Positions 35,656 to 54,386 of a stretch of 62,995 bases of DNA are shown here, in pieces. Under the pieces are notes generated by a model. It searched no databases. It was not told the origin of the DNA and saw only the letters and a list, made by a program, of their open reading frames with translations. Every line of letters begins with the position of its first letter. Within the stretch, counting starts at the first letter, position 1. Source of the stretch: Halomarina rubra (lineage in GTDB: Archaea > Halobacteriota > Halobacteria > Halobacteriales > Haloarculaceae); the NCBI RefSeq assembly GCF_023699475.1, contig NZ_JALXFV010000001.1:21483-84477 (forward strand), given 5' to 3'. Both the position numbers and the translations under genes were made by a program.

Positions 35656-37221
35656 TTAGTCGTCTGCTGGCTGCTGGTCGAACGTCTCGATACCCGGGAT
35701 GCCCTCGACGCCCATCGACGACAGCTCCCGTTTCAGACCGCGCTCGTCGGCGACGTCCTGGCTGAGCTCCATCGCCTGTGCGAAGTTCTTGACGAGCCCA
35801 CAGTTCGGCCCCTCCGGCGTCTCGGAGGGACAGATGCGACCCCACTGGGTCGCGTGCAGGTCGCGTGCCTCGAAGTGCGGTTGGGAGCGCGAGAGCGGCG
35901 ACCGAAGCCGACGCAGGTGGGAGAGGACTCCCATGAAGTCGGTCCGGTCGACGAGCTGACTCACGCCGGAGCGCCCACCGACCCAGTTGCCCGTCGCGAT
36001 GGGGTGTTCGAGGCGTTCGGTGAGCACGTCGGACCGAACGACGGTGCTGACCGAGAGGTTCCGGTTACGCATGTTCGCGCGTTCGAGCTGGTACTTCACG
36101 TCGCGTGCCAGCTTGTTGAGCGCCGTGCGGAACAGGTCGCGCATCAGGTCGCCGCTGACCTTCAGGCGCTTGTTGGCGTAGTGGTCCTTGTCGTCGGCGT
36201 CGCGTCGACCGAGCGCGAGTTCGAAACACGCCTCGGCCATCCGGCAGAGGTAGAACGCCTTGTTGAGTCGCCCCTCCTCGTCCTCGATACCCTCCTCGTG
36301 GAGGTGCGGGAGCAGGTAGCGGTCGATGACGTAGTTCGCGCGTTTCAGCTGGTAGTTCTTGCCCTGGCCGCTCGCGACGCGCTTCCCGAGTGTCTCGATA
36401 GCCTCCGTGGTCGACTGGACCTCGGCGGCCTCCAGATTCTCCAGCATGAACTTGACGATCTCGGGGTCGTCGCTGACGCGGTGGACGATCTCTTCGTCGG
36501 ATTCGAGGCCGAGTGCGCGGACGAGCGTGACGAAGTTGATGCTCCCCGACACCGAGGGGAACGACACTTCGAGCAGGCCCTCGCGGTTGCGCTCACACAG
36601 GACGAGCGCGCGGTAGCCACGGCGCTGGCTGAACGTCTTGGCGACCTGGATGTCGTCGCCGTACTTCGTGTCGTGCTCGGCGAGGATCTTGTTCGGCGCG
36701 AGGTCCTCGCTGGTCATCAGCACGCGCTCGGAGCCGTTGACGATGAAGTAGCCACCGGGGTCGGCGGGGTCCTCGCCGATTTCGACGAGCTCCTCGTCGG
36801 AGAACCCGGCGATGTTGCACTTCGAAGAGCCGACCATGATGGGCATCCGGCCCACCTTCGTCTCGGCGGTGTCGACGACGTGCTCCTCCTCTTCTTTCCC
36901 CCCGCGGATGATGGTCATCTCCATGAACACCGGCGCGGCGTACGTGATGTTCCGGAGACGCGCCTCCTGGGGGTACAGCAGTTCTTCGGACCCGTCCGCT
37001 TCACGCACGCGCGGGGTGGTGATGCGGACGTCACCGAGTTCGACGTAGACGGGCTCTTGGCCCTCCTTGTCGCCGATGTCGGTGTCGATGGTCTCTTTCT
37101 CGTGGACGACCTCCTGCATGCCGCGTTCGAGGAACGCGTTGAACGACCGGAAGTGGTGTTCTGCGAGGCGGTCGCGCGAGAAGTACTGGCGAGAGATGGT
37201 GCGGCGGTCTGCCCTGTTCAT
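35656..37221 (-). CDS. rpoB2: DNA-directed RNA polymerase subunit B'' (N-terminal half of B)
   Basis: A 521-residue N-terminal half of the B subunit, with the protrusion and lobe domains. Conserved blocks include [14 protein letters not shown] near the start, [20 protein letters not shown], and at the C-terminal end [20 protein letters not shown], which forms part of fork loop 2. The ATG overlaps the rpoH stop by four bases. The next gene, rpoB', starts one base after its stop, consistent with a single polycistronic mRNA. Confidence 0.98.
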
Positions 37222-37448
37222 TCTATCACTAGTCGATAGACGACGGCTCGGTCTGCGGTTCGGGAGTCCCGTTCGATGCGGATGACGTCCCCGACCTCCA
37301 CGTCTAGCTCGCGGAGCGGCGGGTCACGGCGTTTGATCTTCGGTAGGTCTGTGCGGTCGATGTTGTACTCGTCCAGCACCTCTTCGAGTTCCTCCTCCTC
37401 GACGATGGTGTGCTCTGGAACGAGGTTGTGTTGGCTTGCGTCTACCAT
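37218..37448 (-). CDS. rpoH: DNA-directed RNA polymerase subunit H (Rpo5)
   Basis: A 76-residue homologue of the eukaryotic Rpb5 C-terminal domain and first gene of the RNAP operon. The signatures [14 protein letters not shown] at the start, [15 protein letters not shown] in the middle and [20 protein letters not shown] at the end are typical. It starts ATG at 37448. The promoter must lie in the 235-base region shared with the divergent tRNA-Asp gene, but I could not pick one TATA box with confidence. Confidence 0.97.
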
Positions 37449-37646
37449 GTGTTCCTGACGGTGGAGAAAGCTATCACGAGATACTACAGCGGGTTATTCG
37501 GCCAGGGGACAAAACGCTTACTATCGGCGCGCAGCGCGGCTGCTGGACCCGCCGTCAGGCGTTACCCCTTGATACGTCATCGGGCAACGTCAATCTGTCC
37601 CTCTGTCGGACGCTACCACGGATACAAGAGCGGACGTTTGGAAAGT

Positions 37647-37654
37647 CTTAAATG
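37647..37654 (+). promoter_or_regulatory. TATA-like element of tRNA-Asp
   Basis: An AT-rich CTTAAATG is centred about 33 bases upstream of the tRNA-Asp 5' end at 37684, an acceptable distance for an archaeal tRNA promoter. It stands out in this GC-rich region. Confidence 0.45.
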
Positions 37655-37683
37655 TATCTCCGGGTTACGAGTGAATGCAGGGT

Positions 37684-37756
37684 GCCCGGGTGGTGTAGTG
37701 GCCCATCATACAACCCTGTCACGGTTGTGACGCGGGTTCAAATCCCGCCTCGGGCG
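37684..37756 (+). tRNA. tRNA-Asp (GTC)
   Basis: A 73-base cloverleaf. The acceptor arm GCCCGGG pairs with CTCGGGC (one G-T pair) and the discriminator is G. The anticodon stem CAACC/GGTTG encloses CTGTCAC, giving anticodon GTC. The T arm CGGGT-TCAAATC-CCGCC has the normal TTCAAAT loop (one mispair at the stem top is possible). CCA is not encoded. Its last 23-24 bases are repeated 126 bases downstream. Confidence 0.95.
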
Positions 37757-37773
37757 CTTCTCTGATTTCCAAC

Positions 37774-37797
37774 CGCGCAGAGGCTCGTCTCTGCGCG
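37774..37797. repeat. Perfect 9-bp hairpin downstream of tRNA-Asp
   Basis: CGCGCAGAG and CTCTGCGCG flank a 6-base loop. It begins 18 bases after the tRNA and may be the tRNA terminator or processing structure. It sits between the two copies of the tRNA 3' end. Confidence 0.5.
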
Positions 37798-37883
37798 ATA
37801 CTTCCGGAAACCAGTGTGCGACTAACTGGGTTTGAACACAAGGAGTCGCAGCGCCGAGCAGAGCGAGGCGACCGTCTCCCCAT

Positions 37884-37907
37884 GGGTTCGAATCCCGCCT
37901 CGGGCGC
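37884..37907 (+). repeat. Duplicated 3' end of tRNA-Asp (attachment-site-like)
   Basis: GGGTTCGAATCCCGCC and the following TCGGGCGC (24 bases in total) match tRNA-Asp positions 37734-37757 with a single A-to-G change. No complete second tRNA can be folded upstream of it. Such copies of tRNA 3' ends are typical of integrase-mediated insertion scars; a degraded second tRNA gene is the alternative. Confidence 0.6.
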
Positions 37908-37956
37908 ACTTCTTCCGAACTCACATTCTCCAGCGAGGCGTCTCCCCGCCGCTCGC

Positions 37957-38418
37957 TCACCGATAGCGCTCGTGGACGGCCAGACCGTCCGCCTCCAGCA
38001 CGCCACCTTCGACCGGAATCTCTCGACCCAGTCGCTCGAACACCTCCTCGCAGGGGATGCCCGGTGGGCCGTCGAACGTCTCGGCGGTGACCGCCCCGGA
38101 GACGCTGTAGACGACGCCGCCGAGGCCGGCGTAGGCGATGCCGGCCGCGCACATCGGGCAGGGTTCGGTGCTGGTGTACATCACCGTCCGCTCGCGCTCG
38201 TCGGCGGTCAGTTCTCGGCCGGCACGACGCGCGAGCGTCAGTTCGGGGTGGAGCGCGAGGTCGTCGTCGCTCTCCTCGCGGTTGGTCTCCTCCACGACGA
38301 CCTCGTCGTCGCGGACGAGGAGCGATCCGTAGGGGCCGTCGCCGCGGTCGCCGGCCTCGCGGGCGAGTTCGATGGCGCGTTCGACGTACCGCTCGTGGTC
38401 GGCGTCTGGAATCGACAT
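37957..38418 (-). CDS. Nucleoside/cytidine deaminase-like zinc protein (TadA/guanine deaminase group)
   Basis: A 153-residue member of the CDA superfamily. Zinc and catalytic residues are in LALHPELTLAR (HPE instead of the more common HAE) and TSTEPCPMCAAGIAYAG (PCxxC). The size and the PCPMCAAGI box resemble TadA/guanine deaminase-type proteins; archaeal relatives are annotated only as nucleoside deaminase, so the substrate is open. It converges on the tRNA-Asp region. Confidence 0.88.
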   Translation of the reverse strand: MSIPDADHERYVERAIELAREAGDRGDGPYGSLLVRDDEVVVEETNREESDDDLALHPELTLARRAGRELTADERERTVMYTSTEPCPMCAAGIAYAGLGGVVYSVSGAVTAETFDGPPGIPCEEVFERLGREIPVEGGVLEADGLAVHERYR

Positions 38419-52316: not shown

Positions 52317-52388
52317 GGGCTCGTAGATCAGTGGCAGATCGCTTCCTTCGCAAGGAAGAGGCCCCGGGTTCAAATCCCGGCGAGTCCA
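52317..52388 (+). tRNA. tRNA-Ala (CGC)
   Basis: A 72-base cloverleaf. The acceptor GGGCTCG pairs with CGAGTCC (one G-T pair) and the discriminator is A. The anticodon stem CTTCC/GGAAG encloses TTCGCAA, giving CGC. The T arm is CCGGG-TTCAAAT-CCCGG. The G3-U70 position where AlaRS recognises its tRNA is present as a G-T pair, strongly supporting the Ala identity. The AT-rich islet starts shortly after. Confidence 0.95.
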
Positions 52389-52465
52389 TCTCCTTCCGTC
52401 GCTACGCTCCGTCAGTCGATGGACCCGCCGTACTCCCCCTCGGTCGCGGTGCTCCCGCGAGGGAG

Positions 52466-52476
52466 TCCCGGCGAGT
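52466..52476 (+). repeat. Short copy of the tRNA-Ala 3' end
   Basis: TCCCGGCGAGT is identical to tRNA-Ala positions 52375-52385. It sits at the boundary where the sequence turns AT-rich (about 52475). Eleven bases could be chance in GC-rich DNA, but its location suggests an attachment-site scar. Confidence 0.35.
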
Positions 52477-53440
52477 TTGTTTGATGTTCCAAGAAGGAAC
52501 TGAATTAGCGAAGCTTGCCCGTACTACTGTCACTGCGTGTTCAATTCCACTCTGAGATTAAATTCGCTATTCGTCATGGCGCTTTTTCAGCGTCCAATCG
52601 TAGCTCCACATCTCTCCATACCTTGTTTCATACTCTCTTGGTCGGTAACCAGGAATGCGCCATATCTTCGATTCTCGACCATATCCATGAACATGCCTTT
52701 TCCTTGCTGATGTTGAGTGAATTCGGTGAATTTCGACCAAAGTTCAGTATCGCGGTTGTATTCTACTTCCTTATATACAGAGTTGGAAACAGACCATCGA
52801 TAGGTTGTAATGATGTCTGGATTGTCAGGAATTCCGTTCAGCAAATCGCATTTCTCAAATTTGTCCGTGACTATAAACTCGACAGTAATCGACTCGCCTG
52901 GGTCCAGGAAATTAGCTTGTATTACCTTACTGCATTGATGGGGCTCGATTGGGCTATCTTTGAGACCAGAACCAGACATTCGTGCTGTAATTGTGTCCTC
53001 GATGTCATAATCTCCTTGTACTGCAGGACCTTCGGTATTCACATGCTCTACGCAACCTGGCAACGGGACAGTTACTTTGAGGTCTCGGACCAATTGGTCA
53101 CCATTATTATCTATCTTAACCCTATATAGTTGATATTCGGACTTCCAAGTCAGGTTTTCAAAGTAAATCACCTCACTTCCTGGTTCGAATGACTCCTTGC
53201 CTTGACTGAATTCTGTTTCTATAGAGGGAGCCTTGTACCCCGGAGCACCGACGCCAACATAAATGTCTGTAACAAATGCGACAAGAAATGGCTGGAAGAC
53301 TGCAGCGATTATCAGGCCAACAACTCCACCAACAATTGCATCGTGCCTGCTGAGAGAGAGTATTCGCTTTTTTATTCGCTCAAACATCGCTTTGAGAGGC
53401 GTTTGTATATTCAGGACATTATTATTTTTGTGTATTAAGT
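52477..53440. mobile_element. AT-rich islet inserted beside tRNA-Ala
   Basis: From about 52477 to 53440 base composition drops visibly to that of a moderate-GC genome, with many A/T-ending codons, against very high GC on both sides. It holds one complete ORF (52587-53387) and no integrase or transposase. The tRNA at one edge and the composition suggest horizontal insertion. The right boundary is approximate. Confidence 0.6.
52587..53387 (-). CDS. AT-rich ORFan with N-terminal membrane helix
   Basis: A 266-residue protein. A basic start (MFERIKKRILSLSRHD) is followed by a hydrophobic segment (about 18-42) and then a beta-rich domain of about 200 residues. Two stretches there resemble a DUF11/CARDB-like secreted fold, the second with LDPGESITVEFIV. 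Four to five Cys and a C-terminal helical part are present. Codon use (AAT, ATT, TAT, AGA) differs from all other genes here, indicating transfer. A 204-residue plus-strand frame lies antisense, but its composition (Phe/Leu/Cys/His-rich) is not protein-like. No family recognised. Confidence 0.65.
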   Translation of the reverse strand: MFERIKKRILSLSRHDAIVGGVVGLIIAAVFQPFLVAFVTDIYVGVGAPGYKAPSIETEFSQGKESFEPGSEVIYFENLTWKSEYQLYRVKIDNNGDQLVRDLKVTVPLPGCVEHVNTEGPAVQGDYDIEDTITARMSGSGLKDSPIEPHQCSKVIQANFLDPGESITVEFIVTDKFEKCDLLNGIPDNPDIITTYRWSVSNSVYKEVEYNRDTELWSKFTEFTQHQQGKGMFMDMVENRRYGAFLVTDQESMKQGMERCGATIGR

Positions 53441-53675
53441 TGGATGACGCACCGCTCGGCCAGGGCTACGTGAAGGGGTCGAAATTCGGGGCCGATGAGT
53501 CAAGCTGTGGCGAGCTCGCATTCCTGGTGAACGTGGACGCTAACGAACTGCTCTGGTGTTCAACTTTCCCAGCCCCACCGACCCGTCGAAGGCGCTGTGG
53601 AACCCTCGATAATCGGTCGGCAGAGACCGACGGTCAAGTCGGCTGATGAGGTTCACGCGGTCGACCGCGTCGTTC
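53388..53675. other. Intergenic remnant region, no intact gene
   Basis: Base composition returns to genome-like at about 53440. Both strands hold only short broken frames; a plus-strand stretch ending TDPSKALWNPR-stop near 53605 looks like the tail of a lost gene but has a stop close upstream. I see no clear transposase motif. Confidence 0.4.
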
Positions 53676-54386
53676 TCACTCCGCGGCCGACACCGAGAGG
53701 TACTCTTCGAGCAGGTCGTCACGGTCGCGCAGTTCGTCGACGGTGCCGTCCCAGACCGGCGAGCCCTTCTCGATGATGTAGGCGCGTTCGGCCAGTTCGA
53801 GCGAGAAGTTGACGTTCTGTTCGGTCAGGATGACGGTGACGTCCTCCTCGACGACGTCTGACAGCACCTCCATCAGGTCCTTGACGATGACGGGGGCCAA
53901 CCCCTCGGTCGGTTCGTCGAGCAACAGGAGGTCGGGGTTCTGGACGAGCGCTCTGGCGACCGAGAGCATCTGCTGTTCGCCCCCGGAGAGGTTCTGGCCC
54001 TTGCTCTGCCGGAGGTCGTCGAGGACGGGGAAGATGTCGAACATCTCCTCGATGTCTCGGGGGTTCGAACAGGCGTTGTGGGCGACCTGCAGGTTCTCGG
54101 TGACGGTGAGCGTCGGGAAGATGCGCCGGCCCTCCGGGACGAGTTTGATGCCCGCGTTGGAGATGCGGTCGACGGAGTCCCGGGAGATGTCCCGGCCGCG
54201 GTAGACGATGCTACCGGTGCGCCGCGGGACGGTGCCGGTGATGCTCCGGAGCGTCGTGGTCTTGCCCGCGCCGTTGCGCCCGAGGAGGACGACGATGTCG
54301 TTCTCCTCGACGGCCATCTCCATGTCGAACAGCACGTGGCTGTTGCCGTAGTAGGCGTCGACGTCCGAGAGTTCGAGGACGCTCAC
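53676..54386 (-). CDS. livF: Branched-chain amino acid-type ABC transporter ATP-binding protein LivF
   Basis: A 236-residue ABC ATPase. Walker A is GRNGAGKTT (about 37-45), signature LSGGEQQMLSVARAL, Walker B LLLLDEPTEGLAP, H-loop region VILTEQNV. The EGLAP after Walker B and the short length are typical of LivF. Its ATG overlaps the livG stop by four bases. It works with LivG below the LivH/LivM permease pair. Confidence 0.94.
   Translation of the reverse strand: MSVLELSDVDAYYGNSHVLFDMEMAVEENDIVVLLGRNGAGKTTTLRSITGTVPRRTGSIVYRGRDISRDSVDRISNAGIKLVPEGRRIFPTLTVTENLQVAHNACSNPRDIEEMFDIFPVLDDLRQSKGQNLSGGEQQMLSVARALVQNPDLLLLDEPTEGLAPVIVKDLMEVLSDVVEEDVTVILTEQNVNFSLELAERAYIIEKGSPVWDGTVDELRDRDDLLEEYLSVSAAE

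What the first reader, a model, noticed from the sequence alone, without database searches (positions are those of the whole stretch)
52317..53675. AT-rich islet with an ORFan membrane protein beside tRNA-Ala
About 1 kb of clearly lower GC follows tRNA-Ala, beginning right after an 11-base copy of the tRNA 3' end (52466-52476). It encodes one 266-residue protein with an N-terminal membrane helix and a beta-rich domain, and no mobility gene. A single-gene cargo islet at a tRNA may be a defence, immunity or superinfection-exclusion gene carried by a lost element.
Basis: partly seen in the sequence, partly recalled or inferred. Interest (0 to 1): 0.6.

Follow-up and report, generated by a model that had tools for sequence, protein, structure and literature searches.

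The report
Virus-borne membrane gene beside tRNA-Ala
A salt-loving archaeon carries, at a tRNA gene that viruses use as a landing site, a single foreign membrane-protein gene whose nearest relatives sit inside integrated archaeal viruses or alone beside other tRNA genes; it looks like viral cargo that outlived its virus and may still protect the cell from related viruses.

Summary
The islet is real. GC is 0.436 over 52477-53450 against 0.68 for the window, and GC3 of its gene is 0.42 against about 0.9. It lies behind tRNA-Ala(CGC) and encodes one 266-aa protein with one N-terminal membrane helix. The protein is not an ORFan: it belongs to a patchy haloarchaeal family (14 members found). A supported six-member clade (97/95) holds the window gene, two other lone AT-rich copies at tRNA-Pro and tRNA-Arg, and three virus- or element-borne copies. 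One of these lies in a betapleolipovirus 92% identical in its NTPase to Harhisp1, another in a simulovirus-like provirus. Harhisp1 is reported to integrate at a tRNA-Ala; 14 of its 15 attP bases match this tRNA's 3' end. In all six same-genus relatives examined the gene is absent and the site differs: an integrase element, a viral ATPase fragment, other AT-rich membrane-protein genes. The 11-base copy is older than the islet, because relatives without the islet have it too; homology to G056 breaks exactly at its end. So the "lost element" reading is well supported. Superinfection exclusion is the best functional guess, untested (about 0.35).

The parts
52317..52388 (+). tRNA-Ala (CGC); its 3' end is the putative attachment site (attB)
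   Evidence: ARAGORN and Rfam; CCCGGCGAGTCCAT equals 14 of 15 bases of the annotated attP of provirus Harhisp1; in G056 the orthologous tRNA is followed by an integrase element ending in a 19-base copy of the tRNA end
52389..52465 (.). old spacer behind the tRNA, shared with sister genomes
   Evidence: 78-80% identity to G054 and to the sequence behind attR in G056
52466..52476 (+). 11-base copy of the tRNA 3' end (TCCCGGCGAGT); old partial att copy
   Evidence: exact match; conserved at the same place in G054, G056 and G051; homology with G056 ends at its last base
52477..53450 (.). AT-rich islet (GC 0.436)
   Evidence: 6.1 sd below the window mean
52587..53387 (-). ORF266: single-TM protein of a haloarchaeal family carried by viruses and tRNA islets
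   Evidence: relatives in 13 genomes; tree; hydropathy
53453..53601 (+). truncated, frameshifted 3' remnant of a host lipoprotein gene (right flank)
   Evidence: 68% over 150 nt to the G056 lipoprotein gene, E 2.4e-7; sequences

Best explanation
ORF266 is an accessory (moron-type) gene that reached this genome inside a temperate haloarchaeal virus or small integrase element that recombined at the 3' end of tRNA-Ala(CGC). The rest of the element was lost by deletion, which also removed most of a host lipoprotein gene on the right, and the gene stayed as a one-gene islet. The protein is anchored by one N-terminal helix and shows its conserved domain outside the cytoplasmic membrane. There it most likely hinders entry (attachment, fusion or DNA delivery) of related viruses, that is, superinfection exclusion. 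Shown: islet, family, linkage to viruses and tRNAs, variable site. Inferred from sequence: history of the site and membrane topology. Inferred by analogy only: the exclusion function. The confidence given is for the whole chain; for the virus or element origin alone it is about 0.85.
For: Relatives: in a betapleolipovirus genome (L051; NTPase 91.8% to Harhisp1), in a simulovirus-like provirus (L052; packaging ATPase 40-42% to SNJ1 and NVIV-1), in an element at tRNA-Pro with a 13-base repeat (L053), in an island bounded by a 44-base tRNA-Leu repeat with an integrase (L094). Integrase within 6.3 kb in 6 of 10 non-resident members, chance 4e-7. Lone AT-rich copies behind tRNA-Pro (L092) and tRNA-Arg (L091, with a DUF4238 gene) in genomes of other families. 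The three lone copies and L051, L052, L093 form one clade, 97/95. Site variability in six sister genomes. In L051 the gene lies between NTPase and replication gene, the stretch called less conserved in all betapleolipoviruses (PMC5867852). Some islands with members also hold TIR (ThsB-like), Schlafen and HNH genes.
Against: No functional evidence. No relative was found in the sequenced isolates of the phage collection or in IMG/VR scans. Four members (genus g10) are resident, normal-GC chromosomal genes with no integrase noticed nearby. No right-hand att copy remains in the window, and the left copy is not specific to this islet. No reliable fold.
Confidence: 0.35

Rival explanations
1. Virus-borne surface protein with another job: lysogenic conversion that changes adhesion, S-layer or envelope properties of the host, or helps vesicle or virion release, with no effect on other viruses.
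For: Same linkage evidence as the main reading. Weak DUF11/CARDB-type hits in a few members are typical of many kinds of surface proteins.
Against: In L051 the gene is not in the conserved structural block and its GC is 0.39 against about 0.6 for neighbours, so it is unlikely to be a basic virion part. Its retention alone at three tRNA types suggests a benefit to the host by itself.
Confidence: 0.27
2. Passenger: the islet is a neutral, decaying remnant and ORF266 has no present function in this host.
For: The rest of the element is gone and the right flank is a broken host gene. The gene is absent from all same-genus genomes searched.
Against: The frame is intact over 266 codons and keeps the conserved positions of the family; intact lone copies also persist in G302 and G270.
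Confidence: 0.2
3. Cellular gene spread by ordinary horizontal transfer; association with viruses is secondary, and the function is a housekeeping or stress-related envelope function as in genus g10.
For: Genus g10 carries normal-GC resident members (GC 0.60-0.67).
Against: The resident branch is separate from the window's clade (97/95) and only 17-21% identical to ORF266; its nearest neighbour in the tree, L090, is itself close to an integrase. The family is rare: 13 of 391 class genomes at E below 1e-20.
Confidence: 0.13

Closest known systems
Betapleolipoviruses Harhisp1, HHPV3 and HHPV4 (Pleolipoviridae)
   Same: The closest kind of virus to carry a relative of ORF266 (L051, NTPase 91.8% identical). 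Harhisp1 is reported at a tRNA-Ala (PMC7911831) and its attP matches this tRNA end in 14 of 15 bases.
   Different: The isolates themselves lack ORF266. The window has no pleolipovirus gene, only the cargo. L051 bears a different att-like end from the tRNA-Ala one.
Simuloviridae (SNJ1, NVIV-1, HJIV-1)
   Same: L052 carries an ORF266 relative in a provirus with a simulovirus-type packaging ATPase (40-42%).
   Different: Isolates are reported to reside as extrachromosomal elements (abstract of PMC12642351), whereas L052 has an SNJ2-like integrase; no simulovirus gene is in the window.
Membrane-anchored superinfection-exclusion proteins of bacterial temperate phages (e.g. SieA of P22, Ltp of TP-J34; from memory)
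   Same: Single gene on a temperate virus, small membrane-anchored product, acts alone in the known cases.
   Different: No sequence relation was found; archaeal host and envelope; function of ORF266 untested.
Lone cargo genes at tRNA integration sites (genomic islets)
   Same: Foreign composition, tRNA 3' flank, variable content between close relatives.
   Different: The islet is reduced to one gene and has no remaining integrase or distal repeat.
DUF11 / CARDB Ig-like surface domains (Pfam)
   Same: Weak hits in a few members (best E 5e-4 for DUF11).
   Different: ORF266 itself scores 12.6 bits against a cut-off of 24.6.

Membership tests
Islet left by an element integrated at a tRNA | Foreign composition directly behind a tRNA 3' end | tested here: met
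   GC 0.436, z -6.1, 88 bases behind tRNA-Ala
Islet left by an element integrated at a tRNA | Content differs between close relatives at the same tRNA | tested here: met
   Seven same-genus loci including the window, all different
Islet left by an element integrated at a tRNA | Direct repeats of the tRNA end on both sides | tested here: not met
   Only the proximal 11-base copy, which also occurs in relatives without the islet; so filed as a remnant by composition, context and comparison, not as an intact element
Islet left by an element integrated at a tRNA | Integrase gene in the islet | tested here: not met
   None within 10.6 kb downstream by the session's integrase profile
Pleolipovirus provirus | Conserved block of spike, NTPase and replication genes | tested here: not met
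   Only ORF266 in the islet; tblastn of the L051 NTPase finds nothing in the window
Virus-borne accessory gene family | Relatives carried inside virus genomes or proviruses, outside the conserved block | tested here: met
   L051 and L052 by virus hallmark genes, L053 and L094 by integrase and att repeats
Superinfection-exclusion protein | Membrane or envelope location | tested here: met
   One strong hydrophobic helix behind a basic N-terminus; prediction only
Superinfection-exclusion protein | Blocks infection by related viruses | not testable with these tools
   Needs an infection assay
Known anti-phage defence proteins (PADLOC-DB) | Match to a defence model | tested here: not met
   No match for ORF266 or its two relatives scanned
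DUF11 (PF01345) | Score above Pfam's gathering cut-off | tested here: not met
   12.6 bits against 24.6

The most novel reading that the evidence does not exclude
ORF266 founds a new family of haloarchaeal envelope superinfection-exclusion proteins, shared by two unrelated virus groups (pleolipoviruses and simuloviruses) and repeatedly kept by hosts as stand-alone immunity genes at tRNA sites after the virus is gone.
Probability: 0.27. Interest if true: 0.72.

Novelty: new member of a known kind. Interest (0 to 1): 0.5.

Why it matters
Superinfection exclusion or immunity is described as poorly understood in archaea (PMC5350488). This locus gives a concrete candidate: one intact, isolated gene with virus-borne relatives in a cultivable genus (Haloarcula) and natural stand-alone copies at three tRNA types. 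It also shows that the tRNA-Ala behind EF-1alpha/uS10 is a recurrent landing site in this family, where small AT-rich membrane-protein genes are left behind; those genes form a short list of candidates for archaeal virus-host conflict.

Tried and rejected
Close-relative scans of genome contigs and viral contigs with ORF266 found nothing, nor did phages and plasmids by tblastn or IMG/VR with other members; one alignment was too diverse to scan. A PDB sequence search gave only weak matches on the membrane helix. Rejected: the 11-base copy as the left att of this islet in particular, because relatives without the islet carry it. Rejected: 53453-53675 as cargo. Rejected: the opposite-strand ORFs as genes, since the homology to relatives follows the minus-strand ORF. 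No RNA family other than the tRNA; promoter and terminator scans were near chance (sigma-70 type, not suited to archaea). The L053 capsid-like protein had no match in the phage collection, so L053 is called an integrase element at tRNA-Pro and not assigned to a virus family.

Full report
Setting. The window is from a haloarchaeon of GC about 0.68. Its family also contains Haloarcula: the same-family genome G027 is Haloarcula salina YGHS18. Gene order is homoserine dehydrogenase, EF-1alpha, uS10, a short membrane protein, tRNA-Ala(CGC) at 52317-52388, the islet, then branched-chain amino-acid type transporter genes, the first at 53676-54386 on the minus strand (gene names other than the ABC ATPase are my reading of the sequences).

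Observation. The islet 52477-53450 has GC 0.436, z = -6.1 against 974-base stretches of the window. It encodes one protein, ORF266, at 52587-53387 on the minus strand. GC3 is 0.42 against 0.90-0.93 in flanking genes, and the longest ORF in 500 first-order shuffles was 161 aa. There is one hydrophobic helix near residues 18-40 behind a basic N-terminus. The 11-base copy of the tRNA end at 52466-52476 is real.

The copy is older than the islet. In sister genomes G054, G056 and G051 a similar 70-85-base spacer and the same 11-12-base copy follow the tRNA end (in G056, the distal copy attR). Homology between window and G056 covers positions 4-88 behind the tRNA and stops at the last base of the copy. 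After the copy, G054 has an AT-rich 160-aa membrane-protein gene, G051 has sequence with a viral packaging-ATPase fragment (57% over 44 aa), and G056 continues into a host lipoprotein gene. In G053 the tRNA itself is broken: its first 29 bases are fused to the copy, followed by another AT-rich membrane-protein gene. G052 and G055 keep the tRNA-to-transporter order without ORF266. The divergence point of this site is thus at the att-like copies, and each genome carries something else behind them.

Right flank. Window 53453-53601 is 68% identical to the 3' end of the G056 lipoprotein gene (blastn E 2.4e-7) and frameshifted relative to it (VFNF..DPSK..W in another frame). The islet therefore ends inside a truncated host gene, and any right-hand attachment site has been lost.

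A complete element at the same site. In G056 a 5.7-kb element lies between the tRNA 3' end and a 19-base exact copy of it, with a tyrosine integrase next to that copy; behind the copy follows the old spacer. Among 31 loci of the family with about 15 kb downstream, 5 have an integrase there, and at least 10 have exact short copies of the tRNA end within 400 bases.

The protein family. No PHROG, NCBIfam or PADLOC family matches ORF266, and Pfam gives only a sub-threshold DUF11 hit. Whole-genome searches found 13 relatives (13 genomes including the window's among 391 class genomes at E below 1e-20, plus one more genome of genus g10). Members share conserved G, P, Y, W and Cys positions.

Where relatives live. 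L051 (Haloarcula salina, 16.9-kb contig) carries a pleolipovirus gene set; its NTPase is 91.8% identical to that of Harhisp1. The ORF266 relative (GC 0.39) lies between the NTPase/ORF7-like genes and the replication gene (DUF7845), the stretch that PMC5867852 describes as less conserved in all betapleolipoviruses. L052 has a simulovirus-type packaging ATPase and an integrase 77% identical to that of L053. The L053 element lies at tRNA-Pro with a 13-base repeat. L094 lies in an island bounded by a 44-base tRNA-Leu repeat with an integrase. L090, L093 and L057 are also near integrases, and L093 is next to a DUF7845 replication gene. Six of ten non-resident members have an integrase within 6.3 kb, chance 4e-7 given the counts per genome. 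Leaving out the four resident members was decided after looking; with all fourteen counted the chance is still of order 1e-5 by my arithmetic.

Lone copies at tRNAs. L092 (G302) has the gene alone, GC 0.40, 190 bases behind tRNA-Pro and pointing towards the tRNA as in the window. L091 (G270) has it with a DUF4238 gene behind tRNA-Arg. These genomes belong to other families than the window's. The tree puts the three lone copies with L051, L052 and L093 in one clade (97/95), apart from the resident genus-g10 branch.

Link to known viruses. Harhisp1 is an active provirus reported at a tRNA-Ala (PMC7911831). Its annotated attP, CCCGGCGAGTCCATG, matches CCCGGCGAGTCCAT at this tRNA end. The match partly reflects conservation of tRNA-Ala, so it shows a compatible site, not that this virus was the donor.

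Mechanism. Shown: foreign composition, site variability, linkage of the family to integrated viruses and to tRNA sites. Inferred: entry with a virus or integrase element at this tRNA, later deletion of everything but ORF266, outward-facing domain. Guessed by analogy: the domain blocks entry of related viruses. The support is indirect: a single-gene membrane protein carried as AT-rich cargo by two unrelated virus groups, kept alone after virus loss in three haloarchaeal families, and found near TIR (ThsB-like), Schlafen and HNH genes in some islands. I put the virus or element origin at about 0.85 and exclusion specifically at about 0.35.

Other cargo genes of the site behave alike. The G053 cargo (ORF155) has a relative next to an integrase in G031 (gene 733229-733630, integrase 732539-733051). 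The G054 cargo (ORF160) has one about 1 kb from an integrase in G093 (GC 0.37).

Novelty. The kind of thing (virus cargo left at a tRNA) is known; the protein family is unnamed and its function open. Hence 'new member of a known kind', with moderate interest.

Noticed in passing
L043 reverse complement, about 2520-2600 (G053, same genus): The tRNA-Ala behind uS10 is broken: its first 29 bases are fused directly to TCCCGGCGAGTCCAC, as if a deletion had joined it to the downstream copy; a tRNA-Ala-like gene matching at 89% exists elsewhere in that genome.
   Followed up: partly
L041 reverse complement, 2363 to about 8030 (G056): A 5.7-kb integrase element at the orthologous tRNA-Ala, bounded by a 19-base copy of the tRNA end, with several uncharacterised GC 0.50-0.57 ORFs.
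   Followed up: partly
L068 16865-16996 (G051): Fragment of a viral packaging ATPase (57% to residues 197-237 of the L052 protein) downstream of tRNA-Ala, a trace of an older provirus.
   Followed up: no
31 tRNA-Ala loci of the family: Exact short copies of the tRNA 3' end 64-306 bases downstream recur in at least 10 loci, often behind a palindromic spacer; whether they are scars or have a role is unexplained.
   Followed up: partly
L040 (G054) ORF160 and L043 (G053) ORF155: Two other rare AT-rich membrane-protein genes as lone cargo at the same tRNA; relatives next to integrases in G093 and G031, and one relative of ORF155 (63%) in the window's own genome at C10:330119-330583, about 2 kb from an integrase-like match.
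   Followed up: partly
window 37001-38000: A milder GC dip (0.607) around the second tRNA of the window, tRNA-Asp 37684-37757.
   Followed up: no
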